A DNA stretch of 64,000 nt from Candidatus Nitrospira nitrosa (GTDB lineage: Bacteria; Nitrospirota; Nitrospiria; Nitrospirales; Nitrospiraceae). The first letter of the stretch is position 1, and each line of letters begins with the position of its first letter. The notes under the pieces were generated by a model. It saw only the letters and a program-made list of their open reading frames with translations, was not told where the DNA came from and made no database searches. Position numbers and translations under genes: made by a program. Where the stretch lies: contig NZ_CZQA01000001.1 in NCBI RefSeq assembly GCF_001458735.1, forward strand, positions 1 to 64,000, in the 5' to 3' direction. Below, one piece after another: positions 8,454-27,073 of the stretch.

Positions 8454-8701
8454 ACATACTCCTTTATGTTCATCAGAGACACCACCCCTCACGGCTTCCT
8501 AGTGGACGGCATCTCCTTGATCATCCGACAGACCCTATGGAAACCACACCCTATTCTGCTCGGTTCCTGACAATGACTGAGTTCACACCATTGCCACAGT
8601 TCACACGGCGCCAAGATTCCTCATAGACACAAACCTGTCCCCCACTCTCCCCCTCAGGCTATTCCAACATCATCCACCCGCCACATCGGTTATCGACCAT
8701 C

Positions 8702-9133: not shown

Positions 9134-9298
9134 CTTCACAACTCCGCGCGTTCCGTACCACCACAGCTGGTACGTAGAGCATCACAGATGAGGTGCGTTT
9201 GGCCTATCGGGGAAACCCTGATGAGGACGTGAGGAGTGCCTGAAGCACCCCGATGAGGTTACTGAAACACATCAGAAGATGGAGGGGAAGAAAACCAC

Positions 9299-11409: not shown

Positions 11410-11559
11410 AATCCTTGGCGGGCTACCTCAAGAACCCTATGTCAGCCCCCCAGGGAGAGAATAACAGACCAGTGGTAACCGGAGGGAATAGATGACGCAT
11501 GATACTACAAGCGGCAATCAGGCGTTCACCTGAGACGGCCCCTAGGGAATGGAATAAGC

Positions 11560-11867
11560 CTAACTCTTGAGTTCGGCCGTTTGGCGATTGACGACCCAGA
11601 CACCGGCGAGAATGAGACAGATACCGATAATTTCAATCAAACCAATGGCTTCCCCTAAAATCAGGGCGGACAACCAAATCGCTGCACCGGGGTCAGATTC
11701 CTAGCACCGAGGCCCGTGACGGACCGAATATCACGGAGGACCAAAGCTTCAACTGCGGAAAACGACGTGAGCGCCATCGTTTGCGCGACAATCGATCCAC
11801 CCCAGAGGGCCGCTGCAAGAATGACTGATCCATAGGCCACAGAGGTGGACGGCTGAGACATGGCCAC
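11560..11867 (-). pseudogene. EamA/DMT transporter, internally deleted
   Basis: The N-terminal helix of a drug/metabolite transporter is present (GSVILAAALWGGSIVAQ). After about 50 residues the sequence jumps, in a different frame, to the family C-terminus (GAAIWLSALILGEAIGLIEIIG...ILAGVWVVNRQTAELKS). Only about 90 of the usual 280 to 300 residues remain. The junction around 11686-11700 contains ACCGGGGTCAGATTCC, whose first ten bases are the reverse complement of the first ten bases of this window. The gene cannot encode a working transporter. Confidence 0.8.
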
Positions 11868-11987
11868 TGGGATACCGTCGTTTCCCCATTGCCTTCATGC
11901 AGTATTCTACCGATCGGTCATTGACTTGACGACGTTGACGTTTGTCACTAGCCTACGTCTAAAGAACATGGCCGACCAACAGGGAGG

Positions 11988-12383
11988 GTGTTCATGATCT
12001 GGAAACCAAGTCGACAGGGGTGGGGTGCACTGCTTATCAGTACGTCGCTGCTCCTCACGGGCTGTACCACAGCGCTTGTCCGAGATGACGTCAGATATCC
12101 GAAAACTCAAGCCCATTGCTCGGGCTCTCAAGGAGTCGATGACTCCTCCATTGCCGTCCTGCCGGTTCCGGTGGTTGCGTTCGTTGTGCCTCATGTCAAC
12201 CTCCATGACATTAAGGCCGACGACTATCTGAAGCGATGTGGCGATTCAACCAAGTTGATCAACCGGAAGGTCGAGGTGAACCGTACGGCCTGTATCCCGG
12301 CTGGATTGACCCGCATCATCACTCTCGGCATCTGGCAATGGTGCCCCGCCAGCATTGCGTGGGAAGCGGATGTGAAACCCTAA
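11988..12383 (+). CDS. hypothetical lipoprotein
   Basis: This product of up to 131 residues starts with a lipoprotein signal ending in the lipobox LLTGC. After the signal comes a segment with four more cysteines (AHCSGS, KRCGDS, TACIPAG, QWCPAS), which could form disulfides in the periplasm. The stretch VPVVAFVVPHVNLHDIK is hydrophobic. AACAGGGAGGG precedes the start. The ATG at 11994 is an equally good start. No family is recognised, and the function is unknown. Confidence 0.65.
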   Translation: MFMIWKPSRQGWGALLISTSLLLTGCTTALVRDDVRYPKTQAHCSGSQGVDDSSIAVLPVPVVAFVVPHVNLHDIKADDYLKRCGDSTKLINRKVEVNRTACIPAGLTRIITLGIWQWCPASIAWEADVKP

Positions 12384-12591
12384 CGCGTAACACTCTCTCT
12401 TCCAAGCTGTTGACCAACCCTGTGCCAGGGTTCGTCAAAGAGGGTACGCCCGAATCGTTCTATTCAGACCACACAACAGACCTGCCCTGAGCACACCCCC
12501 CAGCCATGGGGTAGAACACAACAAGAGCACTCGGAAGGGGAAATCGAGACCAGCCGAGCACTGGGGTATCTGATTTTGGTACCATAGCGCC

Positions 12592-13719
12592 ATGACCGAC
12601 ACGATGAATCGCCAGAATTGGATCAGATCACTCGTCCTTGTTCTGTTTATCGCCCTCCTAGGCATCGGCTTGGCGGCTTGGAAATACGAATCTCTACAAA
12701 GTGAGCATGCCGCCTCGGCGAGGCAGCCGGAGCCGAGCGAATCGATTACGGTCACGGTCGCACGAACCATCGATCACCGGCCGAACACCACATCGATCGG
12801 AACCGTCCTCGCGCTCCGGTCAATTTCGCTGAAGAACGAACTGGCCGGCACGGTTCGCGAAGTCCGCCTCAGACCAGGACAGCTCGTGGAAGCCGGAGCC
12901 TTGTTGGTCGCACTCGATGTCTCGGTCGAAGAAGCAGACCTGCGCGCACAAGAAGCTCAGGTGGCACTCGCGAAAACGATTCTCAATCGTCGGCAACATC
13001 TGAGTCAGGAGCTTGCCACCACGCAGGAAGAAGTGGACCGGGCACGGGCCGATTTAGATGTGGCCCAAGCCCAGATCGCCAGGACCAAAGCCGTCATTGC
13101 CAAAAAGACAATCCGCGCCCCATTCCGAGCCAGAGTGGGAATCGCGGATGTCCATCCCGGCCAATATCTGGACGAGGGAACACTCCTTACTACACTCCAA
13201 GGAGTGAGTGAAGCCGTGAATGTGGATTTTGCTGTGCCGCAACAAGTGGCCGGAAGTTTGCGGGTCGGCGAAACCGTCGAAGTCGTAGCTGTAGGCGCAG
13301 CCCTACCCATCAAGGCCAAGATTATCGCCCTCGACGCGCGTGTGGATCCAATCACCAGGAATGCCATGGTGCGAGCCAGGATCGAGAGTTCACGCACGGT
13401 ACTTGCGCCGGGAGCCTCCGTACGAGTACGTGTACCTGTTGGTTCAATGCGCCAGGTTGTCGCTGTTCCCGTGAGTGCCCTCCGCAAGGGGCCTGGGGGA
13501 GACCAGGTGTTTGTGGTCACACAGGGACAAGATGGTCAGACAAGGGTGCGCGCGCGTCACGTCGAGAGTGGACCGATGGCAGGCGACGAGATCGTGATTC
13601 ATGAGGGACTTACCGCCGGTGAACAGGTCGCCGCTGTCGGGTCCTTTAAACTCCGCGACGGTGCCCTTGTCACCATCACGGCTGGACCCGACAGCCCATC
13701 AACGCAAGCACAATATTGA
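12592..13719 (+). CDS. RND efflux periplasmic adaptor (MFP)
   Basis: This 375-residue membrane fusion protein links an inner-membrane RND pump to an outer-membrane channel. An N-terminal membrane anchor (LVLVLFIALLGIGLAAW) is followed by the lipoyl half (TVREVRLRPGQLVEAGALLVALD) and a helical hairpin (residues roughly 120-165). The second lipoyl half (KKTIRAPFRARVGIADVHPGQYL) and beta-barrel domains follow. Its TGA stop lies just before the pump gene. No outer-membrane channel gene is adjacent, so it probably borrows one encoded elsewhere. Confidence 0.93.
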   Translation: MTDTMNRQNWIRSLVLVLFIALLGIGLAAWKYESLQSEHAASARQPEPSESITVTVARTIDHRPNTTSIGTVLALRSISLKNELAGTVREVRLRPGQLVEAGALLVALDVSVEEADLRAQEAQVALAKTILNRRQHLSQELATTQEEVDRARADLDVAQAQIARTKAVIAKKTIRAPFRARVGIADVHPGQYLDEGTLLTTLQGVSEAVNVDFAVPQQVAGSLRVGETVEVVAVGAALPIKAKIIALDARVDPITRNAMVRARIESSRTVLAPGASVRVRVPVGSMRQVVAVPVSALRKGPGGDQVFVVTQGQDGQTRVRARHVESGPMAGDEIVIHEGLTAGEQVAAVGSFKLRDGALVTITAGPDSPSTQAQY

Positions 13720-13745
13720 GCCAACAACGCGTGATCGCCCCAACG

Positions 13746-16700
13746 ATGAAACAGTCTGTTTCCCCTAGGTCCTTCACTGATATCTTCATCGTCCATCCGG
13801 TCTTGGCCATCGTCGTGAACTTAGTGATCCTCCTTGCGGGGTGGAAAGCCTTGACCGCCCTCCCGGTCCAGCAGTATCCGAAAATCGAGAACTCGCTGGT
13901 CGTCATCACTACCATTTATTACGGAGCGAGTGCCGAGACCATTCGTGGATTTATCAGTACACCAATCGAGCGAGTCGTCTCGGCCATCAGTGGTGTGGAT
14001 TATGTCGAATCGACCAGTCGGTCCGGCGTCAGCACCGTGACCGTCCACTTGAAGTTGAACCACAGCAGCACGGCGGCCCTCGCTGAGGTTACGGCGCGGC
14101 TGCAACAGGTGCGGGCGGAACTGCCGCCGGAAGCCGAGCCGGCTGCGATTGAAATACAGCGGGCGGATCGCCCCTATGCCTCCTTTTATCTCAGCTTCAG
14201 CTCACAGGAGCGCACGGTTCCAGCCGTCACCGATTGGCTTCTGCGCACATTGCAACCGCAGCTGGCCACGCTGCCCGGCGTCCAGCGAGTCACCTTCGAA
14301 GGTGAACGGCAAATCGCTATGCGGATTTGGATCGATCCTGACCGTCTGGCCTCATTCAATCTCTCCCCCGGTGACGTTCAAGGAGCACTCCGACGGAACA
14401 ATTACCTCGCCGCCGTCGGCCGGACGAAAGGCAATCAGGTCCAGATTAATTTGCTCGCCAATACCGACCTTCGCTCGACGACTGAATTTGAGGAACTTAT
14501 CATCGCCGACCGAGACGGCGCCATCGTACGGCTTAAAGATGTGGCGCGCGTCGAGCGCGAAGCGGAAGAAGCGAACATCATCGCCAAATACGACGAAACG
14601 GAAGGCGTGTACCTCGGTATCTGGGCGGTACCCGGCGTCAACGAGATCGAGGTCGGCCATCGCCTGCGCGACGAGGTCGACCGAATTCGCCCGACGTTGC
14701 CGAGCGATATCGACATGAAACTCGTCTGGGACAGCACCATGTTCATCCGAAACGCCCTGACGGAAATCTCCAAGACTCTGTCGGAAACAATTCTGATCGT
14801 CGCGCTGGTGGTCTTTCTCTTCATGGGATCAGTCCGAACGGCCCTTGTCCCGCTGGTGGCGATACCGGTCTCACTGATCGGAGCTGCACTTTTCTTGATC
14901 GCCTTCGGGTTCAGCCTCAACCTGCTCACGCTTCTCGCGATTGTATTGTCCGTTGGGCTGGTTGTGGACGACGCCATCGTCGTGGTGGAGAACGTGGAAC
15001 GGCACGTACGTCTTGGCAAATCCAGAATTGCAGCCGCGCGAGCGGCCGCACGGGAACTACTCGGTCCCATCGTAGCCATGACCATCACGCTCGCCACCGT
15101 CTATGCGCCCATCGGCTTTCAAGGCGGACTTACCGGATCGCTGTTCCTCGAATTCGCCATAACCCTGGCTGTTGCGGTGGTGTTGTCGGGAATCGTCGCC
15201 ATCACCCTCTCACCCGTGATGAGTTCTCGCTTTGTCCATCCACAAGGTCAAGAAGGTCGGTTGACCACGTTCGTCAACCGACGGTTTGACGAAGCACGGA
15301 GGATCTATGTCTGGCTGCTCGACGGCGCCCTCACGATGAATTGGGGAATCGTGTCGGCTGCCCTCTTCATCATGATCGCAGCCTGGCCGCTGTATCATTT
15401 CTCTCGCCTGGAGCTGGCGCCTGTCGAAGACCAGAACCATATCAGCCTCTTCTTTGAAGCCTCACCGGATTCCACTGTGCAGGCGACCAACCGCAAACAC
15501 TTTCAGATCGTCAAAGCAATTACCGCCATCCCTGAAACAGACTATACCTGGTCACTCACCACTGCATGGGGCGGCTTCGGAGGGGTTGTCGCAAAAGATT
15601 GGCATGATCGTGCCCGTTCAACCGAAGCGATGTACGACGACGTGTATGGCGCCGTCTTGCAAGTCCCTGGACTGCGCGTCTTCCCCCGGCTCGATCCGCC
15701 GCTCCCCACTCCGGGACAGTACGACGTTGAGTTAATTCTTGAATCCGATGCGCCTGGTGAGCAACTGCTCGAAACCGTCGGAACCTTGTTGGGTGCGGGG
15801 TGGCAAAGCGGAAAGTTTCTCTACGTGGATACAGACCTCAAGATCGATCTCCCTCAAGCGAGGGTCGTCCTGGATCGTGAGCGGCTCGCAGACTTGGGAT
15901 TCGATTTGGCCGGGGTCGGTCGTGAGTTGGGGACTATGCTCGGTGGGGCCTACGTCAACCGCTTCAACTACTTCGACCGAAGCTACAAAGTCATCCCTCA
16001 ACTCGGCGATAAAGACCGTGCAACGATCGATCCGTTACTCGATTTGAAGATCAAGGCTCCAGGCGGCCAATTGGTGCCCGTGTCGACCTTCGCCCACATC
16101 GAAACCAGTACGGCGCCACGCAGCTTGAACCGCTTCCAACAACGGAATGCCGTCCGCATCTTCGGCGGGCTCAAACCAGGTGTCACCAAAGAAGAAGGTC
16201 TCCGGGTGCTCGAAGAGGCTGCTGCAGCAGTCGGCCCACGGATCTTCGTCGACTATGCCGGTGAATCGCGCCAGCTCCGTCAGGAGGGCTCAGCCCTCAC
16301 TGTCACACTGGGCTTTGCGGTGGTGCTGATCTATTTGGTATTGGCTGCCCAATTTAAAAGTTTCCGCGATCCGCTCATCGTACTCCTCGGTTCGGTTCCG
16401 CTCGCTATTTCTGGGGCCTTAGTCGTCAGCTTTCTCGACCTGACGACCATCAATATCTACTCTCAAGTCGGGCTGATTACACTGGTCGGACTCATCGCCA
16501 AAAATGGGATTCTCATCGTGGAATTTGCCAATCAGCTGCAGACCCGTGGACTGTCGAGGCTCGCAGCCATCAGAGAAGCTTCCCTGACCAGGCTGCGACC
16601 AGTCCTCATGACCTCGGCCGCCACCATCTTCGGCCATTTCCCACTCGTGCTGGCCACAGGACCAGGAGCGGCAGCCCGCAATAGTATCGGCATGATGCTG

Positions 16701-16844
16701 GTCACAGGAATGACGGTCGGCACGCTCTTTACCCTTTTTGTCGTCCCGGTGTTCTACTCATTGATTGCGGCACAACACCAATCAGCTCCAACATCAGAAA
16801 CCGAGACAGGAACCGCACTCAAACCAGTAGAAGCCGACACATAG
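13746..16844 (+). CDS. RND efflux pump inner-membrane subunit (HAE1-like)
   Basis: This protein of about 1032 residues is a proton-driven multidrug-type exporter with 12 membrane helices and two large periplasmic loops. The proton relay Asp-Asp pair is in GLVVDDAIVVVENV, at about residues 408-409 counted from this ATG, close to AcrB 407-408. This supports the start here over a TTG at 13716 that overlaps the adaptor stop. The substrate is unknown. The last 411 bases (16440-16850) are duplicated, with frameshifts, at 24447-24855 on the far side of the nxr genes. Confidence 0.93.
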   Translation: MKQSVSPRSFTDIFIVHPVLAIVVNLVILLAGWKALTALPVQQYPKIENSLVVITTIYYGASAETIRGFISTPIERVVSAISGVDYVESTSRSGVSTVTVHLKLNHSSTAALAEVTARLQQVRAELPPEAEPAAIEIQRADRPYASFYLSFSSQERTVPAVTDWLLRTLQPQLATLPGVQRVTFEGERQIAMRIWIDPDRLASFNLSPGDVQGALRRNNYLAAVGRTKGNQVQINLLANTDLRSTTEFEELIIADRDGAIVRLKDVARVEREAEEANIIAKYDETEGVYLGIWAVPGVNEIEVGHRLRDEVDRIRPTLPSDIDMKLVWDSTMFIRNALTEISKTLSETILIVALVVFLFMGSVRTALVPLVAIPVSLIGAALFLIAFGFSLNLLTLLAIVLSVGLVVDDAIVVVENVERHVRLGKSRIAAARAAARELLGPIVAMTITLATVYAPIGFQGGLTGSLFLEFAITLAVAVVLSGIVAITLSPVMSSRFVHPQGQEGRLTTFVNRRFDEARRIYVWLLDGALTMNWGIVSAALFIMIAAWPLYHFSRLELAPVEDQNHISLFFEASPDSTVQATNRKHFQIVKAITAIPETDYTWSLTTAWGGFGGVVAKDWHDRARSTEAMYDDVYGAVLQVPGLRVFPRLDPPLPTPGQYDVELILESDAPGEQLLETVGTLLGAGWQSGKFLYVDTDLKIDLPQARVVLDRERLADLGFDLAGVGRELGTMLGGAYVNRFNYFDRSYKVIPQLGDKDRATIDPLLDLKIKAPGGQLVPVSTFAHIETSTAPRSLNRFQQRNAVRIFGGLKPGVTKEEGLRVLEEAAAAVGPRIFVDYAGESRQLRQEGSALTVTLGFAVVLIYLVLAAQFKSFRDPLIVLLGSVPLAISGALVVSFLDLTTINIYSQVGLITLVGLIAKNGILIVEFANQLQTRGLSRLAAIREASLTRLRPVLMTSAATIFGHFPLVLATGPGAAARNSIGMMLVTGMTVGTLFTLFVVPVFYSLIAAQHQSAPTSETETGTALKPVEADT

Positions 16845-16850
16845 ACCACT
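16440..16850 (+). repeat. direct repeat, intact copy (RND 3' end)
   Basis: This is the last 411 bases of the RND pump gene plus six bases after its stop. It matches 24447-24855 in the same orientation, with scattered substitutions and two single-base deletions in the second copy. Similarity begins abruptly at CTGACGACCATC and ends at TAGACCACT. The two copies bracket nxrB, nxrA and the two-component genes. Confidence 0.88.
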
Positions 16851-16964
16851 CGTGGTATCTTATGCGACGTGAACGATCGGGAGTGACTGACGCATATTGT
16901 TTGATCTTGAAGGACGTTGAACCAGAAACTGCGCAGATCGCAAACGCCCTAGCCTGAAATAGAA

Positions 16965-16999
16965 GAGGGGCGGAACCCTTCTTCGGAGCCCCACCCCTC
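16965..16999 (-). terminator. probable terminator after nxrB
   Basis: The arms GAGGGGCGG and CCCCACCCCTC at the ends of this interval can pair on the minus strand with one mismatch, and TTCTATTTC follows in the direction of nxrB transcription. It lies 28 to 62 bases beyond the nxrB stop. The T-run is weak, so efficiency is uncertain. Confidence 0.5.
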
Positions 17000-17026
17000 G
17001 TTCTACCGGTTCTCGTCCGTACCGAC

Positions 17027-18316
17027 TTACAGCCAGGTCACCCGTTCGGCCGGCCGAATGTAGATCGGCTCTTCCACCTGAATCCGGGCCACTTCTTTCC
17101 CGGACTTATTGAAGCCCAGGACCGTGTCGTTGTACATCTCAAAGCGCTTGCCGTGAATCTGGGTCTCGAACACTTTCGGCCCAGGGATCACATCGTACCG
17201 GAAGACGATCTGCTGACTGGCTCGCCAGAGCTGGAGCACCGCGAGGAGCTCCCGGCTTGGAACCAGGTACTTTTCAATGGCATTGTCCACACCAGGCCCA
17301 AACATCTGGCGGGCATACCCGCGCGGGGAATGCCGCGGTGGAATGTAATAGCCGTTGGGCTCCGTCCCCCACTGGGGGTACAACGGCAAGGCCACCTGCT
17401 CGACCCGAATCGTGTAGTACAGCGGGTGCCACCGATCCTCCGCCCACAGCCCATCCTCGCCGATCCGCATCAAACTCTGCATCCGGATCTTGCCGACACA
17501 GGCCGCCATACACCGGGTTTCCATCGGTTCTCCCCCGGTCAACGGATCTTTGCCTTCGATCCGAGGATAGCAGGCGATACACTTTTCACTGACCCGAGTC
17601 GTCCCTCGATACATGGGCTTCTTGTACGGACACTGTTCCACACACTTTTTGTACCCCCGGCATCGATTCTGGTCGATCAGGACGATCCCGTCCTCAGGAC
17701 GCTTATAGATCGCTTTCCGCGGGCAGGCCGCTAAACAGCCCGGATACGTACAGTGATTGCAGATCCGCTGTAAGTAGAAGAAGAAGGTCTCATGTTCCGG
17801 CAAGCTGCTGCCGGTCATCTTCCAGGGTTCATCCCGTGAGAACCCGGTCTTGTCGATGCCTTCCACCAGCGCGCGCATGGAGGTGGCGGTGTCCTCATAA
17901 ATGTTCACAAACCGCCATTCTTGGTCGGTTGGAATGTACCCAATCGCCGCCTGCCCCACCTTGGCGCCCGCGTCGAAAATGGTCATCCCTTCGAATACCC
18001 CGTACGGCGCATGGTGTTTGCGTCCCACCCGGACGTTCCAGACCTGTCCGCCGGGATTGACCTGCTCAATCAGCTGGGTGACCTTGATGTCGTAGAACTG
18101 GGGATACCCCCCATAGGGCTTGGTCTCCACGTTGTTCCACCACATGTACTCCTGCCCCTTCGAGAAGAGCCAGGTCGACTTATCGGCCATACTACAGGTT
18201 TGGCACGCTAAGCAGCGGTTGATATTGAAGACAAAGGCAAACTGCCACTTCGGATGCCGCTCCTCGTAGGGATACAACATCTTTCGTCCCAGCTGCCAGT
18301 TATAGACTTCAGGCAT
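17027..18316 (-). CDS. nxrB: nitrite oxidoreductase beta subunit NxrB
   Basis: This 429-residue iron-sulfur subunit carries electrons from the NxrA molybdenum site. Four cysteine clusters are visible: RCLACQTC (Cys35, 38, 41), the ICNHCTYPGCLAACPRKAI block, NRCRGYKKCVEQCPYKKP and EKCIACYPR with a later METRCMAAC. They correspond to three [4Fe-4S] and one [3Fe-4S] cluster in the DMSO reductase-type beta subunits. There is no signal peptide, and it is presumably exported with NxrA by hitchhiking through Tat. The sequence is typical of Nitrospira NxrB, a common marker of the genus. It lies 119 bases downstream of nxrA. Confidence 0.97.
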   Translation of the reverse strand: MPEVYNWQLGRKMLYPYEERHPKWQFAFVFNINRCLACQTCSMADKSTWLFSKGQEYMWWNNVETKPYGGYPQFYDIKVTQLIEQVNPGGQVWNVRVGRKHHAPYGVFEGMTIFDAGAKVGQAAIGYIPTDQEWRFVNIYEDTATSMRALVEGIDKTGFSRDEPWKMTGSSLPEHETFFFYLQRICNHCTYPGCLAACPRKAIYKRPEDGIVLIDQNRCRGYKKCVEQCPYKKPMYRGTTRVSEKCIACYPRIEGKDPLTGGEPMETRCMAACVGKIRMQSLMRIGEDGLWAEDRWHPLYYTIRVEQVALPLYPQWGTEPNGYYIPPRHSPRGYARQMFGPGVDNAIEKYLVPSRELLAVLQLWRASQQIVFRYDVIPGPKVFETQIHGKRFEMYNDTVLGFNKSGKEVARIQVEEPIYIRPAERVTWL

Positions 18317-18374
18317 GGTTTCCTCCGTTTGGTGTCATGGGGCAATAAGTCACAGCCATTTGGTAAAGGCGACC

Positions 18375-18414
18375 GGCAATGGCCAGTCAGATTCGGCTCT
18401 GATTGACCATTGCC
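18375..18414 (-). promoter_or_regulatory. stem-loop between nxrA and nxrB
   Basis: The outer arms GGCAATGG (18375-18382) and CCATTGCC (18407-18414) pair perfectly. The inner bases extend the stem to about 17 pairs with one mismatch and one G-T pair, around a small loop. It fills the middle of the 119-base nxrA-nxrB spacer and has no T-run. A role as mRNA stabiliser or processing site that sets nxrA:nxrB output is an inference; a leaky terminator is the alternative. Confidence 0.55.
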
Positions 18415-18435
18415 GATTGGACCATTGGCCTCCGG

Positions 18436-21400
18436 TTACACCTTAATCTTGATGTGCTCACCTTTCAGCCACTTAATCATGAACTCGTTCTCTTGGCCTG
18501 GCGTAAATCCAGTACGCACCGGTTCCCAAGGACCACGGGCCCCGATCCCGCCGTCCTCCGCCTTGGTGATCCGGATGAGACATTCCTTCGGCACCGTGTT
18601 GACGGCATGGTGGTCGATTTCGAACCCCCATTTAAACTTAAGCCCGTTTGCACTTTTCCCTGGGAGCGAATCAGTTTGATGCATCGGCATGAGCCAGCTG
18701 CGTGTAAAGGACTGTTGCGCCCCATAGCGGAAGTTCGACTGATACCCCGTGTCGATGGCAATGGCCCGTCCATCCGGTCTGGTCTCGTGTCCTTTGACCG
18801 ACTTTGGCGTGGAGACATACGGCGCATGTTTTGCCATGGTCACGTGATACGGATAAGCCGGGTTGTACTTGGCCCGGATCATGAGTCGAGCCACTTTGTA
18901 GTACGGATCACTCGGTTTCCATCCACGATAGGGACGATCCACCGGGTTCCCATCGATATACACATAGTCCCCGTCGTTGATGCCGCGATCTTTCGCTGCT
19001 TGGGGATTGATGTGCACCTGGTGTTCGCCGACTCCCGGCGTCCGTTTGTCCATGCGATAGGGATCACCGAAGTTCGACTCATAGATCTGCACCCAGTCGT
19101 TCACCGACCATTGGCTATGAACGCGGTGACGCGTCTTTGGCGTCACACAGTAGAACTGATAGCCCTTCTCCCAGAGGGGATTGGTGTGGCGCTTGATCTC
19201 TACCCACGGGAGCTTGATGTTCCGGATTGTTTTGTCGTCGTGGTGTTGGGCTGTGACGGGAATTCCATAGTCGTCCGGCCGAACATGGGGGTTGGTCGTG
19301 AAAATGGCGTTCGGCAGATACGGCGTCGCCTCCGGTCCCTCACGATGGGAGATGAAGTTCTCCCCGTACTCGATCGCTTCCGGTTCAACCCGATAACTCT
19401 CGATGCGCCCCGATCGGGTCCACATCGGCTTCGACTCGTTGGTCTCCTCCCAGAGGGGGTGCCGCGGATAGGTCCGCACCATGACCATCCATCCCTTTTC
19501 CGACTTCAAGAGCACATCGGCACTATATCCGTAAAAGGTGCTCGACGCATCCAGGAGACGTTGGGCGTAGACGTCCACGCGATTCTCATAGACAAAGTGA
19601 AAAACGTCTCGCATGCGTTTTTCGCCCGTGATCTCGGCAAGTCTGGCCGCCACCCCGGCAAACGTATCGGCATCGTTCCGCGTGTCGTACAGCGGCCGGA
19701 TTCCCCCCTTCCAGATCTGTACCCAGGGATTCGACACGGTCGCCGTCATTTCCGGATAGGTGAACTCCATCCAGGAGTTCACGGCGAAGGCGATATCCGC
19801 ATGGTTGACGTCGGACGTCATCTCGATGTCCTGCGTAATGAGACATTCGATGTTGGGGTCGACGTTCCGCACCATGTCGTAGTGATGCTTGGCGTTGTTC
19901 AACAGATTGACGTTGACGACCCAGCGAAGCTTGCTGGGGGTCGGCATATGGGTCTTTCCCGTAAACACCTTGCGGCCATACTTCGGGGTATTGACGATCA
20001 AGGCCGTATCCCCATGATTCCAGTACCCGGGCTCTTCGCCATAGTAGTAGCTCTTGTACTTAATTTCCTTCCCATGGGCATTGGGGTCTAGATTGATCTG
20101 CCATGGATCTTCCGATAGGTGAACGCCGGAGCCGGACCCCGACCAGGGCGTCGCACTCCAAATCCCCACTTTGTAATTGCCGGACCAGGTATGACAGCCG
20201 GAGCCGAACTTCCCGATATTGCCGGTCAAGGTCAGGACCAGGGCGGCCGCCCGTCCATTGGAGGTCATGTGGAAATAGTGGCAGACCCCCTCGCCGTTGT
20301 GGATGGCCGCCGGTTTAATCGTGCCCGAGTCGCGCGCCCAGCGGACCAGGAGATCCTTGGGCGAGCGGGTGATCTGATGCGTGGTATCCAGATCGTAGTC
20401 TTGGAAGTGAATCTGATACATCTGGTAAATGGGCTGCGCGTCGATTTCGCGTCCGTTCAACAGTTTGACTCGATAGGTGCCGGTCAACGCGGGCTGAATG
20501 CCGCTGCTATCGAAATGCCAGCCGACTTGCTCACGATGGAGTGGGACGGCTTTCTGCTTGGCCAGGTCCCACACCATGAACCCGCCTAACCGTTCGATGT
20601 ACTCTGGTTTCAAGGCTTGGATTCGGCCGGAATAACTGTGTGAGAAATCAGGGAACTTGTAGTCCGGAATCACCTCACGGGGGTCCAGGTACTGCAGGGT
20701 ATCCGTGCGGACCAACAAGGGCATGTCCGTGAACTGCTTGAGATAGTCGACGTCGTGCATGTTCTCATCGAGAATGATCTTGCAGGCGCCGAGGAACAGG
20801 GCCCCGTCCGATTGCGGGCGAAGGGGAATCCAGTAGTCGGCACGCTGGGCCGTGGGATTGTACTCCGGCGTGATCACCGCAAGGCGCGCCCCGCGCTCGA
20901 TCGATTCGAGCTTCCAATGCGCTTCCGGCATTTTGTTCTCGACGAAATTCTTACCCCAGCTCGTGTTGAACTTCGTGAAACGCATATCGCTCAAATCCAC
21001 GTCGCAATTTTGCGTCCCGTTCCAAAATGGCTGGGAGGGATCTTGGTCCCCATGCCAGGTGTAGTTGTTCCAATACCGGCCGCCTTGCGCCTGATCCGGC
21101 CCCACCTTGCGTACCCACGTATCCAAAACCGGTAGGACGCTGTTGTTGAAACGGGTATTGGAATGTTTGCCGATGAATCCGAGAATGGGCATACCTGCCC
21201 GGTGCTTGAAGCAGCGCACACCCGCGCCCTTCATCATTTCCACCATCTCCGGCGCATACCCTTGCTCGCGAAGACGCCGTGCCCCGGCTTCACCGCTGTA
21301 TCTGGTGGCAATGACGACCATCGCCTTCGCCGCATAGGTAAACGCCGTATCCCAGGAGACCCGAAGCATATCGTCCAAGAACCGGCTGGCAAACTTATAC

Positions 21401-21873
21401 TTGCGCTTGGTTTCAGGCGTCAGCTCGGGCGATCCATCGTCCATCCACTGTTTCCAGCCCTTCCGGATCAAGGGGCCCTTCAGCCGATAGGGTCCATAGA
21501 CGCGCCGATGGAACGTAAATCCCTTGAGGCACATCCGAGGGTTGTGCGCGAAAGTGCCGCGGTTGCCATACAAGTCTTCATAGGTCTGGTGGTCATAGTT
21601 CTGCTCGACCCGCATCACCACTCCGTTCCGAACGAAGGCGCGAATGCGGCAGGCATGTGTGTCGTTGGGGGAGCACACCCACGTGAACGATGAATCGTAC
21701 CGATACTGGTCGTGATAGACCCGTTCCCAGGAGCGGTCGGGATATTCCCCCAAGGGGTTGCCGACTTCTGTGACCGGTTGAAGCGCCGTCAAGGCCAGGA
21801 CTTTGTCCGCCACAGCGATAGCAGCGATCGTGCCGGCAGAAGCTTTCATGAACTGTCTACGTGTAATGACCAT
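18436..21873 (-). CDS. nxrA: nitrite oxidoreductase alpha subunit NxrA
   Basis: This 1145-residue molybdopterin enzyme oxidises nitrite to nitrate and is the key energy enzyme of Nitrospira. An N-terminal twin-arginine signal (TRRQFMKASAG, Arg5-Arg6) places it in the periplasm, as known for the genus. The domain order fits the type II DMSO reductase family. A His/Cys FeS site comes early (FTWVCSPNDTHACRIRAFV), followed by the Mo-bis-MGD domains, and the molybdopterin dinucleotide-binding region lies at the C-terminus. AGGAGGT precedes the ATG. Nitrospira genomes often carry several nxrAB copies, so others may exist outside the window. Confidence 0.97.
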   Translation of the reverse strand: MVITRRQFMKASAGTIAAIAVADKVLALTALQPVTEVGNPLGEYPDRSWERVYHDQYRYDSSFTWVCSPNDTHACRIRAFVRNGVVMRVEQNYDHQTYEDLYGNRGTFAHNPRMCLKGFTFHRRVYGPYRLKGPLIRKGWKQWMDDGSPELTPETKRKYKFASRFLDDMLRVSWDTAFTYAAKAMVVIATRYSGEAGARRLREQGYAPEMVEMMKGAGVRCFKHRAGMPILGFIGKHSNTRFNNSVLPVLDTWVRKVGPDQAQGGRYWNNYTWHGDQDPSQPFWNGTQNCDVDLSDMRFTKFNTSWGKNFVENKMPEAHWKLESIERGARLAVITPEYNPTAQRADYWIPLRPQSDGALFLGACKIILDENMHDVDYLKQFTDMPLLVRTDTLQYLDPREVIPDYKFPDFSHSYSGRIQALKPEYIERLGGFMVWDLAKQKAVPLHREQVGWHFDSSGIQPALTGTYRVKLLNGREIDAQPIYQMYQIHFQDYDLDTTHQITRSPKDLLVRWARDSGTIKPAAIHNGEGVCHYFHMTSNGRAAALVLTLTGNIGKFGSGCHTWSGNYKVGIWSATPWSGSGSGVHLSEDPWQINLDPNAHGKEIKYKSYYYGEEPGYWNHGDTALIVNTPKYGRKVFTGKTHMPTPSKLRWVVNVNLLNNAKHHYDMVRNVDPNIECLITQDIEMTSDVNHADIAFAVNSWMEFTYPEMTATVSNPWVQIWKGGIRPLYDTRNDADTFAGVAARLAEITGEKRMRDVFHFVYENRVDVYAQRLLDASSTFYGYSADVLLKSEKGWMVMVRTYPRHPLWEETNESKPMWTRSGRIESYRVEPEAIEYGENFISHREGPEATPYLPNAIFTTNPHVRPDDYGIPVTAQHHDDKTIRNIKLPWVEIKRHTNPLWEKGYQFYCVTPKTRHRVHSQWSVNDWVQIYESNFGDPYRMDKRTPGVGEHQVHINPQAAKDRGINDGDYVYIDGNPVDRPYRGWKPSDPYYKVARLMIRAKYNPAYPYHVTMAKHAPYVSTPKSVKGHETRPDGRAIAIDTGYQSNFRYGAQQSFTRSWLMPMHQTDSLPGKSANGLKFKWGFEIDHHAVNTVPKECLIRITKAEDGGIGARGPWEPVRTGFTPGQENEFMIKWLKGEHIKIKV

Positions 21874-22197
21874 GTGTTCTACCTCCTATTTAGTAGAATG
21901 AGGAAGACGCAGTGAATATGAGTAAGATCAACCTTCTTGCTCTCTATAGCTAGATTCCATTTCCTGAGATCCACGCGTGTCTAGCTGAACATAGATCACA
22001 GGACAAACTGTCATCGGCTCATTGACGAGTCGAGGATACACATGACTCCGGTGTGAATCAGAGTTGACGCATCAAACCATCCATGAGGATGCAGCTTAGC
22101 GGAGCGCCGTTGGAATAAGGGAAAGAAAGACTACCGGTCGTGCTTGAAGAGACTACGAGGTTTTGGTTGGTCAACTACCGTAGTAAGTCGAGAGGGA
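21874..22197 (-). promoter_or_regulatory. nxrA upstream region
   Basis: This 324-base gene-free stretch precedes nxrA on its strand and presumably holds its promoter. I see the ribosome binding site AGGAGGTAGAACAC immediately before the ATG and a short inverted repeat GTTGGTCAAC near 22165. I cannot assign a confident -35/-10 pair or a known operator. The colinear response regulator gene ends at its far edge, so it may also carry read-through from that gene. Confidence 0.45.
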
Positions 22198-22842
22198 TCA
22201 CGATGCCGTGACTAAGCCATGTGCCACGGCATATTTGACCAGATCAGGCGTACTATGGACGTGGAGTTGCTCCATAATCTTGGTTTTGTGAAACTCAACC
22301 GTGCGGTGAGATATCTTCAGTTGGTCAGCGATTTCTTTCGCGGACAATCCTTCGGCAACCAATTGCAGAATCTCATGCTGCCTCGTCGTTAAGTCGTCGA
22401 TCGTAGCCAAACGAGCGTGTGTCGGCTTGAGGAACGACGTCACGACTTCTTTTGTAATGAGCGGAGTCATATAGAATTTACCGTTCATCACAGACCGCAC
22501 CGCCTGCATCAATTCTGTGGCTGCCGATCGCTTCAATAAATAACCTGACGCTCCGGCTCTGAACGCCGCGTCGACATAGGCCATATCGGCATGCATCGTA
22601 ACAAAAATCAGTTTCACTGTTGAAACCTGCTTCTTGAGCTTTTTCGCCGCCTCAACGCCGTTCAGCTTTGGCATTGAAATATCCAGTATCACGATGTCAG
22701 GCTGAAGGTTTACAGCGGCTTCAATGAGAGCGCGGCCGTCTTCCACAGACGCGACTAATTCGCAATGGGCTTCCAGTAATTTTTTGAATCCCTCGAGCAC
22801 AAAGGTATGGTCGTCAGCCAAGATAACTCGTGGTTTCTTCAT
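22198..22842 (-). CDS. NarL/LuxR-family response regulator next to nxrA
   Basis: This 214-residue regulator has a receiver (VILADDHTFVLEGFK, phospho-Asp in IVILDISMPK, Lys in YLLKRSAATEL) and a LuxR helix-turn-helix (LTTRQHEILQLVAEGLSAKEIADQLKIS at about 147-174). The start at 22842 (MKKPRV) is chosen over 22953 because the domain begins there, and it overlaps the kinase 3' end by 29 bases. It lies upstream of nxrA on the same strand, so regulation of nxr is plausible but not shown. Confidence 0.92.
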   Translation of the reverse strand: MKKPRVILADDHTFVLEGFKKLLEAHCELVASVEDGRALIEAAVNLQPDIVILDISMPKLNGVEAAKKLKKQVSTVKLIFVTMHADMAYVDAAFRAGASGYLLKRSAATELMQAVRSVMNGKFYMTPLITKEVVTSFLKPTHARLATIDDLTTRQHEILQLVAEGLSAKEIADQLKISHRTVEFHKTKIMEQLHVHSTPDLVKYAVAHGLVTAS

Positions 22843-24352
22843 GTGGCGCTCCAGAAAATGGAATATGTACCATGATATGTGTACCTCGCCCTGGCTCGGA
22901 CTGGATATCAAATCGTCCTTGCACGGATCGAACACGCTCCCGCATATTGACAAGACCTAACCCGGAATGGCCTGCCTGAGCATTCTTAAGATCGAAGCCA
23001 ACACCAGTGTCCTGGATCGATAGTGTAATCTCCTGTCCGTCGCAGATCAGTTCAAGCTCCACACGAGTGGCACGAGCATGCTTCATGATGTTGGCAAGGC
23101 TTTCCTGAGTGACTCGATAGAGGCATGAGGCAACATCGCGCGGTAAAGGATCGGCCATCTCTTCCCCTACGATGACTATTCTAATTCCAGTTTTCTCGGA
23201 CCATTCTTCGGCCATATGTTTGAGTGCGGCAGTGAGACCTAGATCGTCCAGAATAGAGGGATGAAATTTATATGCCATACGGCGAACGTCATCGGATATC
23301 TTGGCCAACCGTTGACTGATGGATTGGATCATGTTGTTCGCTTGTGTGGTCATTGAGGATGGGGTGGACAACATATTCCCAATGTCGATTGCTACCAAGG
23401 CCAGCCGTTGGTTAATGTCGTCGTGAAGCTCGCGCGCAATACGTCTCCGTTCTTCTTCTTGCGCCATCATCAGTTCGGCCGTCAATGACTGGAGCTGCCG
23501 CTCCGTCCTCAGGCGCTCCGTGATATCTCGTAGGATTAACGTATACGTGACTCTCGAGCCAACGCTCAGGGTGGAGATACTGGCTTCTGCAGGAAACTCA
23601 CGTGCGTCTTTCTTTAAACCAGACACCTCACGGCGTTGTGCCATCCGATGAGTTGATTCTGGATTATGAGCAAACTCGTCGATGGACGATGGGTGATCAA
23701 TCCGAAATCTTTCGGGTAGCAAGAGATCAATCGGCTTCCCAAGCACCTCGCTTGGCTCATAACCGAATAACTTCACCGCTCCTTGATTAAACAGTGTGAT
23801 CGATCGATCATGTTCGGTGACGATGATGGCGTCTTCGGCGAGGTCAAGGATGTCAGCGAGCCGCCCCTGGGAAAGTCGTAGCGCCTGTTCAGTCTGAACG
23901 TGTTCGGCGACTTCCATTGATAAGGTCTGATTAACGGATGTAAGTTGCTGAGTCCTTTCTGTCACCTTTTGTTCCAGATCCTCATTCGCCCTCTGCAGTG
24001 CCGTTTCGGCCTGGCGCCGTTTCTGGGCAAACCAGACGAGCACCCACAGAATCACAATCGTGATGAACCGGTTCCCCACCTGGACCCAAGGTGGCAAATT
24101 AGCAAACCATGGAGTGCCAATCCCTCCAATGATGGTAAGGAGGGTTCCCGCACCAGCAGCGATTGACGGCATCCATGAAAGCCGCGAAACAGTGGCAACC
24201 AAAACAACTACGACATACAACTCATGATCGGCAAACGCCATCGGTGAATTCAGATCGAACGCGAACAGCCCTACCAGGAGTATGACCATGAGGACGGCCA
24301 AGATGGGTTCTCTCAATTGCTCGTTCATACGGATGGTATGCTTCCAAGTCAT
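22814..24352 (-). CDS. PAS-containing sensor histidine kinase near nxrA
   Basis: The 512-residue kinase has N-terminal membrane helices in the first 100 residues. A long coiled coil (RANEDLEQKVTERTQQLTSV) is followed by a PAS domain (LADILDLAEDAIIVTEHDRS). The HisKA_3 site has the phospho-His in RRIARELHDDINQRL, and the ATPase domain has a DTGVGFD G box. The start may be 24328 (MNEQ) instead of 24352. It partners the overlapping NarL-type regulator. I see no haem-, FeS- or nitrite-binding motif that would identify the signal. Confidence 0.92.
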   Translation of the reverse strand: MTWKHTIRMNEQLREPILAVLMVILLVGLFAFDLNSPMAFADHELYVVVVLVATVSRLSWMPSIAAGAGTLLTIIGGIGTPWFANLPPWVQVGNRFITIVILWVLVWFAQKRRQAETALQRANEDLEQKVTERTQQLTSVNQTLSMEVAEHVQTEQALRLSQGRLADILDLAEDAIIVTEHDRSITLFNQGAVKLFGYEPSEVLGKPIDLLLPERFRIDHPSSIDEFAHNPESTHRMAQRREVSGLKKDAREFPAEASISTLSVGSRVTYTLILRDITERLRTERQLQSLTAELMMAQEEERRRIARELHDDINQRLALVAIDIGNMLSTPSSMTTQANNMIQSISQRLAKISDDVRRMAYKFHPSILDDLGLTAALKHMAEEWSEKTGIRIVIVGEEMADPLPRDVASCLYRVTQESLANIMKHARATRVELELICDGQEITLSIQDTGVGFDLKNAQAGHSGLGLVNMRERVRSVQGRFDIQSEPGRGTHIMVHIPFSGAPHEETTSYLG

Positions 24353-24446
24353 GAGCCGCGCTGTTGCTTAAGGTTATCGAGGACGATGGGCGTACGTCAA
24401 ATGGCGCTTATCACTAGGCGAACAGGTAAGCGAGACTGCGGTCAAT

Positions 24447-24849
24447 CTGACCGCCATCAATATCTACTCTCAAGTCCGGCTGATTACACTGGCCGGACTC
24501 ATCGCCCAAATGGGATTCTCATCGTGGAATTTGCCAATCAGCTCAGACCCGTGGGATGTCGAGGCTCGCAGCCATCAGAGAGGCTTCCCTGACCAGGCTG
24601 CGACCAGTCCTCATGACCTCGGCCGCCACCATCTTCAGCCATTTCCCACTCGTGCTGGGCACAGGACCAGGAGCAGCAGCCCGCAAGAGTATCGGCATGA
24701 TACTCGTCACCGAGATGACGGTCGGCACTCTCTTTACGCTCTTTGTCGTCCCGATCTTCTACTCACTGCTCGCGGCACAATACCAATCAGCTCCAGTATC
24801 AGAAACCAAGTCAGAAACAGCACTCATACCAGTAGAAGCGGACGCATAG
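24447..24849 (+). pseudogene. RND pump C-terminal fragment, frameshifted
   Basis: The sequence reproduces the last 135 codons of the RND pump at 16440-16844. Compared with that gene it has lost one base near 24508 (ATCGCCCAAATGGG) and one near 24543 (CAGCTCAGACC), which break the frame. From 24556 an open frame continues to the original stop. No upstream pump sequence exists here, so this is a dead duplicate. Confidence 0.9.
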
Positions 24850-24855
24850 ACCACT
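24447..24855 (+). repeat. direct repeat, decayed copy (RND 3' end)
   Basis: This is the second copy of the repeat at 16440-16850, 409 bases long and in the same orientation. The interval between the copies is about 7.6 kb and contains exactly nxrB, nxrA, the response regulator and the histidine kinase. Flanks outside the repeats are unrelated. Confidence 0.88.
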
Positions 24856-24992
24856 CTCGTCAGCTGGACCGCCTTGTTTAGCGTCAGGTTGCCATACCTG
24901 CTCACACAAGAGCGAAATGGCCTGTCGATTTCTCCGGTTCTCGACGACTATCCTATAAGAAACCACCCAGCTCTCATATCAAGGAGGATCCC

Positions 24993-25406
24993 ATGGCGAC
25001 AAAGAAGAACGGGCCAACGGCTAAGAAGAATAAGGCGCCAGCCAGTATCGTGTGGTTCGAAGTGCCTGCTGATGATCCGGACCGGGCCCGGAAGTTCTAC
25101 AAATCACTGTTCGGCTGGAACTTTGCCAAGCTGCCCGCTGCCATCAACGACTACTGGCATATTGATACGGGAGGTCCAGATGCGTCACCGGATGGGGGCA
25201 TGATGCCACGCATGCACCCGCAACAGCCGATCACAAACTACGTCAGTGTGCCATCGGTTACCAAGGCAGCGGCGAAGGTTGAGAAACTCGGCGGGACGGT
25301 CTGTAAGCCCAAGACGGCCGTTCCAGGGATGGGCTACTTCGCCATTTGCTTGGATACAGAGGGCAATACGTTTGCCCTCTGGGAGATGAACGAACGTGCC
25401 AAGTAA
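24993..25406 (+). CDS. VOC-superfamily (glyoxalase-like) protein
   Basis: This 137-residue protein begins with a lysine-rich tail (KKNGPTAKKNKAPAS) and continues into a VOC fold. It opens with IVWFEVPADDPDRARKFYKSLFGW and ends with the usual GYFAICLDTEGNTFALWE strand. Such proteins bind metals or act as dioxygenases, glyoxalases or resistance proteins; the sequence alone does not settle the reaction. AAGGAGG lies upstream of the ATG. It heads a run with DGPF proteins and an ECF42 sigma factor, a context where such small proteins are common. Confidence 0.85.
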   Translation: MATKKNGPTAKKNKAPASIVWFEVPADDPDRARKFYKSLFGWNFAKLPAAINDYWHIDTGGPDASPDGGMMPRMHPQQPITNYVSVPSVTKAAAKVEKLGGTVCKPKTAVPGMGYFAICLDTEGNTFALWEMNERAK

Positions 25407-25456: not shown

Positions 25457-25816
25457 ATGAAATATCTTTGCCTTGTCTACCTTGAAGAAAAGATCTTGAA
25501 TGCCTTCTCTGCCCACGAACGACGAGGCATTTCCGACGAAGCGATGGCCTATTGTGACAAGTTACAGAAAGCCGGCCAGTTGCTGGCTGCCTCTCCCCTA
25601 CATCCCGTAGAAACCGCCACCACCGTGCGAGTCCGGGGAGGCAAGACCTCGACTACTGATGGGCCGTTCGCCGAGACGAAGGAACAGTTGGGTGGGTTTC
25701 TCATGATTGAGGTCCCGGACCTAAACGACGCCATTCGCATTGCGGCGCAGTTTCCAGCTGCCAAGTTCGGCAGTATAGAGGTTCGCCCCATGAAAGAACT
25801 GGGCTGCGCAGACTGA
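25457..25816 (+). CDS. YCII/DGPF-domain protein
   Basis: This 119-residue protein of the YCII-related family contains the signature DGPFAETKEQLGGF near residues 74-87, for which DGPF proteins are named. The start MKYLCLVYLEE at 25457 is the conserved family start; the frame extends further upstream without support. It ends 6 bases before the sigma factor gene. DGPF proteins are the usual genomic partners of ECF42 sigma factors, which supports a functional link. Confidence 0.9.
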   Translation: MKYLCLVYLEEKILNAFSAHERRGISDEAMAYCDKLQKAGQLLAASPLHPVETATTVRVRGGKTSTTDGPFAETKEQLGGFLMIEVPDLNDAIRIAAQFPAAKFGSIEVRPMKELGCAD

Positions 25817-25822
25817 GAGGCC

Positions 25823-27073
25823 ATGAGTCAACATCCCTCATCAGCTACACGGGAGCAGATCGATGACCTCTACCGCGTTGAGTCACGCCAGGTCCTGGCG
25901 ACGTTGATCCGCCTGTTGGGCGATTTCGATGCGGCTGAAGAGGCGCTCCACGAAGCCTTCGCCGCTGCGATGGAACAATGGCCACGTGAGGGGATACCAA
26001 CGAATCCCCGTGCCTGGCTGGTTTCCACGGGCCGCTTCAAGGCGATCGATGGGATGAGACGGCGGGCGCGGCATGATGCGTCTCTGAACGAACTCGCTAA
26101 ACAGATCGAGAGTACCACCTGTGATTTGCCAGAACAGGAAGACGAGCACATCGAAGATGACCGTCTCCGTCTGATCTTTACCTGTTGTCATCCGGCGCTA
26201 GCTGAAGAAGCGCAACTTGCGATGACACTGCGGGAGATCTGCGCTCTCACCACCGAAGAGATCGCGCATGCGTTTCTCACAAAACCGGCGACGATTGCAC
26301 AGCGGATCGTCCGTGCCAAGGCAAAAATCCGTGATGCACGCATTCCGTATGAGGTGCCTCCACCATCAGAGTTGCCGGATCGCATCGAGACCGTCCTTCG
26401 CGTGGTGTATTTGCTGTTCAATGAAGGGTACTCCGCATCATTCGGCACATCGCTCACCAGAGCGGAGCTCTCCGATGAGGCCATCAGGCTCGGCCGTCTC
26501 TTGCTACAACTGTTGCCGGAACCTGAAGTCATCGGCCTCCTGGCCTTGATGCTCTTGCACGAATCCCGAAGACCGGCACGCACGTCTGCCACCGGCGATC
26601 TTGTCCTCTTGGAGCAACAAGATCGCTCACGTTGGAATCGAGCACAGAGTAGCGAGGGCATCTCATTGGTAGAACGAGCTTTGTCCATGAAATGCATCGG
26701 ACCCTATACACTCCAAGCCGCCATCGCTGCCGTCCATGCCGAAGCATCCAGCTCAGGGGAAACAGATTGGGCGCAAATCATCGCACTCTATGATCTTCTC
26801 TTGCGAGTCGAACCGTCGCCGATTGTCCAACTCAACCGAGCGGTCGCAGTGGCCATGCGTGACGGACCAGCAAAAGGCTTAGAGTTGGTCGATACCCTGC
26901 TAGAGTGCGGCGCGTTAGCCCAGTATCACTTGGCCCATGCCACGCGAGCCGACTTCTGCCGAAGGCTCGGTAAGAACGCGGATGCTCAGGCCTCATACCA
27001 ACGTGCACTGGCTCTCGTAAAACAAGAACCTGAACGGCGGTTTCTGAAAAACCGGCTGACTGAGTTGGACTAA
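25823..27073 (+). CDS. ECF42-type RNA polymerase sigma factor
   Basis: This 416-residue factor has ECF sigma regions 2 and 4 in the first 180 residues ([40 protein letters not shown]). A long C-terminal extension with TPR-like helices follows ([23 protein letters not shown]). This layout matches COG4941/ECF42, which lack a classical anti-sigma factor and are controlled through the C-terminal extension. It sits between two DGPF genes, the conserved ECF42 neighbourhood. Targets probably include the flanking DGPF genes. Confidence 0.92.

What the first reader, a model, noticed from the sequence alone, without database searches (positions are those of the whole stretch)
16440..24855. nxr module lies between direct repeats of an efflux pump gene end
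Seen: the last 411 bases of the RND pump gene recur at 24447-24855 in the same orientation with two frameshifts. The 7.6 kb between the copies contains exactly nxrB, nxrA and their two-component genes. Known: Nitrospira genomes carry several nxrAB copies. Inference: the block was inserted or duplicated by recombination at the pump gene, leaving the second copy to decay. Such repeats could also let the block be lost or amplified.
Basis: partly seen in the sequence, partly recalled or inferred. Interest (0 to 1): 0.75.

Follow-up and report, generated by a model that had tools for sequence, protein, structure and literature searches.

The report
Nitrite-oxidation genes between pump-gene repeats
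In a group of Nitrospira species an extra, regulator-equipped set of nitrite-oxidising enzyme genes sits between an efflux-pump gene and a second copy of that gene's end; the two ends have exchanged sequence in some species, and one relative appears to have lost the whole block cleanly.

Summary
The repeat is real: 16440-16851 recurs at 24447-24856, same orientation, 91% over 412 nt, with two 1-nt deletions in copy 2. The 7.6 kb between holds only nxrB, nxrA, a LuxR-type regulator and a PAS histidine kinase. It is old: 7 genomes of a 12-species Nitrospira clade carry a pump-end fragment beside this kinase, 3 with everything on one contig. Two of the 7 have a longer second copy, starting near pump codon 846, so about 0.6 kb was duplicated and then eroded. 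Copy 2 keeps the pump's older neighbours, so the block entered behind the pump. Sites split by genome rather than by copy (44 versus 2, window versus RBC100; significant in 4 of 6 pairs), though by plain identity only the window and RBC100 show this: the copies have exchanged sequence, at least there. UBA5698, sister to a block carrier, has one intact pump joined to the old neighbour and no block, best read as deletion between repeats. How the block arrived, inverted relative to other species, is unresolved. Amplification is not seen. A comparable loss between nxrB repeats is published for N. moscoviensis.

The parts
12592..13719 (+). periplasmic adaptor gene of the RND pump
   Evidence: Pfam HlyD_D23 and NCBIfam RND_mfp over cut-off
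13716..16844 (+). RND pump permease gene, intact; its 3' end is repeat copy 1
   Evidence: Pfam ACR_tran 812 bits; 1042-aa ORF
16440..16851 (+). direct repeat, copy 1 (pump gene 3' end plus 7 nt)
16965..16999 (-). terminator-like hairpin after nxrB; the first 72 nt after nxrB (17026-16955) are 92% alike at the second nxr locus, so it probably belongs with nxrB
17027..18316 (-). nxrB (name recalled)
   Evidence: Fer4 families over cut-off; nearest NCBIfam DMSO_red_II_bet, below its cut-off; 97-100% DNA identity per 150-nt step inside the gene to the second locus
18436..21873 (-). nxrA, the HK/RR-linked type (name recalled)
   Evidence: Molybdopterin oxidoreductase over cut-off, Tat signal just below cut-off; 88% aa to the genome's other nxrA
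22198..22842 (-). LuxR-type (NarL-like) response regulator
   Evidence: Response_reg and GerE over cut-off
22814..24352 (-). PAS histidine kinase (HisKA_3)
   Evidence: ortholog at E 1e-100 or better in 26 of 79 genomes
24353..24443 (-). conserved HK upstream stretch of about 90 nt, then the junction to the pump fragment
24447..24856 (+). direct repeat, copy 2: 5'-truncated pump fragment with two 1-nt deletions
24993..25406 (+). VOC-type gene (label recalled; nearest NCBIfam AfsK-binding protein KbpA, below cut-off); it follows the pump directly in the block-free form
25457..25816 (+). YCII-type gene of the old downstream cluster (label recalled; no NCBIfam match)
25823..27073 (+). ECF-type sigma factor with DUF6596

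Best explanation
The older order was pump adaptor, pump, VOC, YCII, sigma factor. In an ancestor of this Nitrospira clade a unit nxrB-nxrA-RR-HK was inserted, in inverted orientation, behind the pump stop codon, and about 0.6 kb of the pump's 3' end was duplicated at the far (HK) side. Hence copy 1 completes the pump and copy 2 is a leftover fragment that keeps the pump's old neighbours. Afterwards the two direct copies recombined by ordinary homologous recombination: non-reciprocal exchange made them alike in some lineages (the window's, RBC100's), and a crossover between them removed the block and left one intact pump, as in UBA5698. The unit itself is probably a nitrite oxidoreductase copy with its own two-component control, beside a second nxrAB elsewhere. 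Shown: the repeat, its spread, the block-free form, site patterns that split by genome rather than by copy. Inferred: a single insertion, deletion in UBA5698, control of nxrAB by HK/RR. Unknown: the route of the DNA and what joined the HK side.
For: Same layout in RBC100 and ACE_NIT7 on single contigs, block-free layout in UBA5698; pump-end fragment beside the HK in 7 genomes. bin.260 has pump, YCII, sigma factor with no block, and NPIRA02 pump then sigma factor, so the copy 2 side is the older junction; both are taken as outgroups by pump divergence only, as neither is in the rpoBC tree. RBC100 and G035 share the longer left edge (near codon 846) and five genomes a shorter edge (near codon 907), as expected from one event and later erosion. 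Within-genome splits against copy splits over the six genome pairs: 44:2, 32:1, 28:2, 15:0, 14:6, 8:4; the first four significant. Tree tests reject copy-wise orthology, delta lnL 168, 108 and 93. UBA5698 is sister to RBC100 with 100% support, has no HK ortholog at E 1e-100 and one nxrA, 88% to the window's; its pump 3' end is 99% to RBC100 copy 2 and 96% to copy 1. Of 44 discriminating sites 31 are copy 2-like, 11 copy 1-like (the first three among them), 2 neither.
Against: By plain identity the copies of ACE_NIT7 (87%) and G075 (79%) are not more alike than copy 1 is between species (89%; 87%), and in the tree these pairs do not group; only the window (91%) and RBC100 (95%) pairs do, and window copy 2 is closest to that of its near relative G006 (93%). 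Two of six pairs do not significantly favour the within-genome split, and G076/G036 also has 6 sites of the crossed kind. Both junction forms occur in both sub-lineages, and HK, RR and nxrA identities disagree with rpoBC, so exchange between species has blurred the history and a single origin is not proven. The 11 copy 1-like sites in UBA5698 are scattered, and misassembly cannot be excluded without reads. Other species carry HK, RR, nxrA, nxrB behind a related pump in the direct orientation, which simple insertion does not explain.
Confidence: 0.55

Rival explanations
1. Copy 2 is what remains of a whole second, tandem pump gene; the nxr unit lay or landed between two pumps and the rest of the second pump was deleted.
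For: Two adaptor-pump pairs around the YCII and sigma-factor genes exist in bin.260 (G040); RBC100 and G035 keep a longer copy 2; other species have this nxr unit behind a related pump.
Against: In none of the 7 genomes did the searches show pump sequence upstream of about codon 846 on the HK side, and the longest left edge is shared by two distant members. Copy 2 sequences group with this clade's own pump rather than with four outgroup pumps (98% split); in the smaller tree the one outgroup attaches inside with 45% support, and conversion could hide a paralogous origin.
Confidence: 0.24
2. There is no exchange between the copies: each lineage acquired its own block and pump-end duplication, which is why copies match within some genomes.
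For: Copies tend to group by lineage in the tree; HK and flanking identities fall into two groups; ACE_NIT7 and G075 pairs are no closer than between species.
Against: The long left edge is shared between RBC100 and G035, and the short one among the other five, across both groups; separate events would hardly hit the same bases.
Confidence: 0.12
3. About UBA5698 only: it never had the block, or its block-free contig is an assembly collapse over the repeat.
For: It is a MAG; nxr copies are said to complicate assembly and binning (passages in PMC12342949, and PMC12542776).
Against: It nests inside block carriers with 100% support; the locus lies on one contig of 25,530 bases with an open pump frame of 1036 aa; no HK ortholog was found at E 1e-100 in an assembly listed as 99% complete.
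Confidence: 0.3
4. The block is a site-specific mobile element that uses the pump 3' end as its attachment site and brings a replacement end.
For: The geometry, a displaced gene end beyond the insert, is that of elements in gene 3' ends such as e14 in icd (recalled).
Against: No recombinase among the four genes of the block; repeat far longer than usual attachment sites (recalled); no megablast match in the plasmid or phage collections.
Confidence: 0.04

Closest known systems
nxrAB_4/5 deletion in Nitrospira moscoviensis (PMC6606698; passages read)
   Same: Recombination between repeats removed one nxrAB copy together with a regulator gene, confirmed by resequencing a bioreactor culture.
   Different: There the repeats are two nxrB genes and the lost regulator is sigma-54 dependent; here they are pump-gene ends and the linked regulators are an HK and a LuxR-type RR.
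Divergent nxrA with near-identical nxrB in one genome (N. marina: NxrA 87.3-88.9%, NxrB 98.8-99.5%; PMC8115632, passages read)
   Same: The window genome has the same pattern: nxrA 88% in protein, nxrB 97-100% in DNA per step.
   Different: The pump-flanked location and the HK/RR pair are not mentioned in the passages I read.
NarXL/NarQP-type two-component systems
   Same: HisKA_3 kinase and NarL-like LuxR-type regulator.
   Different: Scores far below the NCBIfam cut-offs for NarX, NarQ, NarL and NarP; a PAS domain is present; ligand unknown. PMC12342949 mentions a two-component system in a conserved cluster with NxrC; I did not test whether it is related.
Duplication-forming or single-crossover insertion flanked by direct repeats (general mechanism, recalled)
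   Same: Complete gene at one side, truncated copy at the other, same orientation.
   Different: The donor molecule is not identified; no recombinase gene lies in the block.

Membership tests
Nitrospira-type NxrAB | molybdopterin alpha subunit next to an Fe-S beta subunit | tested here: met
   Molybdopterin and Fer4 families over cut-off; nearest NCBIfam DMSO reductase type II alpha and beta, both below cut-off
Nitrospira-type NxrAB | Tat signal on the alpha subunit (periplasmic enzyme) | tested here: inconclusive
   TAT_signal 22.1 bits against a cut-off of 22.7
Nitrospira-type NxrAB | nitrite oxidation by this copy | not testable with these tools
   needs expression or biochemistry
Direct-repeat-flanked block that recombines | same-orientation homologous copies at both ends | tested here: met
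Direct-repeat-flanked block that recombines | sequence exchange between the copies | tested here: met
   site splits significant in 4 of 6 genome pairs; by identity only in 2 of 4 genomes with both copies
Direct-repeat-flanked block that recombines | block-free joint in a relative nested among carriers | tested here: met
   UBA5698; one MAG, no reads
Direct-repeat-flanked block that recombines | amplification or a free circle | not testable with these tools
   no reads; no tandem block seen in the loci mapped
Site-specific integrative element | recombinase inside the element | tested here: not met
   only nxrB, nxrA, RR, HK
NarXL/NarQP two-component systems | curated NarX/NarQ/NarL/NarP cut-offs | tested here: not met
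   NarX 104 and NarQ 102 bits against 578 and 553; NarL 130 and NarP 101 against 250 and 343

The most novel reading that the evidence does not exclude
The pump-end repeats, kept recombination-competent by gene conversion over the life of the clade, work as a slow genetic switch: populations lose the regulated nxrAB unit by one crossover, restoring a normal pump gene, and regain it by homologous transfer from neighbours through the same repeats, so that this nitrite-oxidising capacity comes and goes between strains without any mobile-element enzyme.
Probability: 0.1. Interest if true: 0.7.

Novelty: new member of a known kind. Interest (0 to 1): 0.45.

Why it matters
Why Nitrospira keep several nxrAB copies, and how they gain and lose them, is open. 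Here one copy, with its own two-component genes, has a recognisable insertion site, a readable scar, a block-free relative and a record of recombination, so gain and loss become testable by PCR or long reads. It also adds a warning that nxr counts from MAGs, and nxrB as a marker, are affected by repeats and by conversion between loci.

Tried and rejected
Recent duplication of the genome's other nxr locus: rejected, nxrA 88% aa and no HK/RR found there. Plasmid or phage carriage: no match at megablast sensitivity. Derivation from the direct-orientation arrangement of other species by one inversion, or by integration of a circle from such a species: set aside by reasoning, since the first would invert the pump end and the second would give the direct orientation. 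Sigma-54 promoter pattern with one mismatch: 17 matches against 19 expected, none in the nxrA upstream region 21874-22197. Sigma-70 and terminator scans: 3 and 8 found against 4.7 and 6.5 in shuffles, so no signal beyond the hairpin after nxrB. G035's nxrB contig (L171) proved to be its other nxr locus, not the block. RR and nxrA of G042 come from a contig nearly identical to RBC100 (RR 100%, nxrA 99%) and probably from another strain; I do not use them. Structure prediction was not used, as nothing hinged on a fold.

Changes after checking: the long edge is near codon 846 (I had written 836) and the short one near 907; confidence lowered from 0.60 to 0.55 and the novel case from 0.12 to 0.10, with the rivals raised slightly, because the ACE_NIT7 and G075 copy pairs are not closer than between species by plain identity, which I had left out.

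Literature: eight full-text searches. In the listings and passages that I saw there was no description of this pump-flanked arrangement; the search for Nitrospira, nxr and gene conversion found 0 papers. Most listed papers were not opened, and papers of most subscription journals are not held. I read only passages found by term in PMC12342949, PMC6606698, PMC8115632 and PMC12542776.
Full report
OBSERVATION. The last part of the RND pump gene (13716-16844, +) recurs in the same orientation 8.0 kb downstream: 16440-16851 versus 24447-24856, 412 nt, 91.0%, E 2e-162. Copy 2 has two 1-nt deletions against copy 1 and is 5'-truncated. Between the copies lie nxrB, nxrA, a LuxR-type response regulator and a PAS histidine kinase, all on the minus strand. 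The DNA search of the 4,422,398-base genome found no third copy beyond a 93-nt, 74% stretch of a paralog. The genome has a second nxrA, 88% identical in protein, about 1.04 Mb away on the same contig; the 19 kb fetched around it show no HK or RR match. That the genome is a Nitrospira I infer from the named relatives of the pump (95-96%).

SPREAD. A search of named genomes with the pump kept 80 loci of 169 that encode a relative; I mapped 46 of the 80. L005 (RBC100) and L006 (ACE_NIT7) carry the full layout: adaptor, pump, nxrB, nxrA, RR, HK, pump end, VOC, YCII, sigma factor. L007 (UBA5698) has pump then VOC with no block. L004 (RBC069) ends about 180 nt after the pump, and that stretch aligns to the window's own (82%). 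In the GTDB genus held (79 genomes), 26 have the HK ortholog at E 1e-100 or better. By my reading, in 21 of the 26 nxrA follows the HK on the same contig and strand, in 4 the contig ends first, and in 1 (G003) it is divergent. A pump-end fragment lies beside the HK in 7 of them: G000, G006, G035, G036, G042, G075, G076.

AGE AND ORIGIN. Copy 2, not copy 1, has the pump's older downstream genes: bin.260 has pump, YCII, sigma factor and NPIRA02 has pump, sigma factor. Both count as outgroups by pump divergence only (79% DNA; 79% protein); rpoB of bin.260 was not found. So the block probably entered between pump and VOC/YCII. G076 and G035 share a longer copy 2 that begins near codon 846; the window, G006, G075, G036 and G042 share a shorter one that begins near codon 907. 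By eye, G035's copy lost its middle but keeps both ends; its VOC lies on another contig behind other genes. I read this as one old duplication of about 0.6 kb followed by erosion. Outside the clade the same HK, RR, nxrA, nxrB order stands in direct orientation behind a related adaptor or pump: adaptor plus pump in G001, G005 (11.5 kb away), G032, G073 and G077; adaptor without pump between in G020, G030, G051, G052, G053, G054, G056 and G063 (contigs end before nxrA or nxrB in several). The association with this pump cluster is therefore wider than the repeat, and the inverted orientation in the window's clade is unexplained.

SPECIES TREE. rpoBC stretches of 20 genomes (rpoB was found in 23 of 24; G007, G008 and G054 were not fetched; G035 and G027 are partial) put the block carriers in a 12-species clade that is split off with 100% support. 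Of these 12, seven have the fragment beside the HK; UBA5698 is block-free; G072 has about 110 nt of pump end before VOC and no HK; G060's contig begins at VOC; G031 has neither pump nor VOC at the thresholds used but an HK-nxr unit; G027 has pump end, frameshifted VOC, HK, RR, nxrA in one direction. Some inner branches are weak (42-65%).

EXCHANGE BETWEEN COPIES. If the copies had evolved separately since before the clade split, copy 1 should match copy 1 of other species. Instead sites split by genome: window/G076 44 against 2, window/G036 32 against 1, G075/G076 28 against 2, G076/G036 15 against 0, all significant; G075/G036 14 against 6 and window/G075 8 against 4, not significant; crossed patterns number 1, 1, 1, 6, 3 and 3 in the same order. 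Trees forced to keep copy 1 and copy 2 apart are rejected (delta lnL 168, with some inner groups fixed as well; 108 and 93 for two milder versions). Against this, plain identity shows the effect in only 2 of the 4 genomes that have both copies: the window pair is 91% (87% at best to another copy 1) and RBC100's 95% (89%), but ACE_NIT7's pair is 87% (copy 1 to RBC100 copy 1, 89%) and G075's 79% (copy 1 to window copy 1, 87%); window copy 2 is 93% to that of its near relative G006. Gene conversion or equivalent recombination, in some lineages and parts of the repeat, is the simplest reading, because the shared junctions argue against separate insertions.

LOSS. UBA5698 is sister to RBC100 (100%). 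It has one open pump frame, no HK ortholog at E 1e-100 and one nxrA, 88% to the window's. Its pump 3' end is 99% identical to RBC100 copy 2 and 96% to copy 1. Of 44 discriminating sites 31 are copy 2-like, 11 copy 1-like and 2 neither; the first three are copy 1-like, the other eight scattered. This fits a crossover near the left end of the repeat with later changes in RBC100. It is one MAG without reads, so assembly collapse remains possible.

FUNCTION. The HK and RR are of the NarX/NarL general kind but far below curated cut-offs. Control of nxrAB by them is inference from linkage. In N. moscoviensis, nxrAB copies are expressed unequally, neighbouring regulators are sigma-54 dependent, and one copy was lost by recombination between two nxrB genes (PMC6606698, passages): the nearest precedent for what is proposed here.

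MOSAIC HISTORY. Identity between genomes differs along the locus: window-G075 HK 91% but window-G076 HK 79%, although rpoBC gives 88% and 91%. The locus has probably been exchanged among species, which limits any simple history.

VERDICT. It is a new case of known processes, of moderate interest because gain, exchange and probable loss of a key energy gene can be read at one site.

Noticed in passing
window 16955-19150 versus L143 (G000 C1, second nxr locus): nxrB and roughly the last 700 nt of nxrA are far more alike (nxrB 97-100% per 150-nt step; nxrA end 96, 92, 97, 79, 90%) than the rest of nxrA (65-85%), while nxrB of relatives other than G006 (97%) is 84-91% to the window's: conversion between two nxr loci about 1 Mb apart.
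   Followed up: partly
window 29218-29817 and 30046-30645: Two neighbouring ORFs of 199 aa are 76% alike in DNA over 551 nt: a gene duplication.
   Followed up: no
window 63092-63135 and 61390-61424: Palindromes of 44 nt (95%) and 35 nt (91%).
   Followed up: no
L130 (G004 C19), 8274-17854: Another species has a further nxrB-nxrA facing a pump gene convergently, with a methyltransferase-like gene (label by eye) between; the contig ends inside nxrA.
   Followed up: partly
G004 C9:101437-104872: An nxrA that matches in two pieces, one with an internal stop, apparently a pseudogene copy.
   Followed up: no
L137, L138, L140, L148, L150, L151, L152, L153: In 8 genomes the adaptor gene is followed by the HK without the pump gene between.
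   Followed up: no
L154 and L155 (G040, bin.260): Two related adaptor-pump pairs lie about 14 kb apart, with the YCII and sigma-factor genes behind the first.
   Followed up: no
L147 (G042 C77): A contig nearly identical to RBC100 (RR 100%, nxrA 99%) in a genome whose rpoBC is 93.5% to it: probably another strain in the MAG.
   Followed up: partly
L128 and L169 (G035): Between the pump-end fragment and VOC, G035 appears to hold several kb of other genes whose homologues are adjacent in L043.
   Followed up: partly
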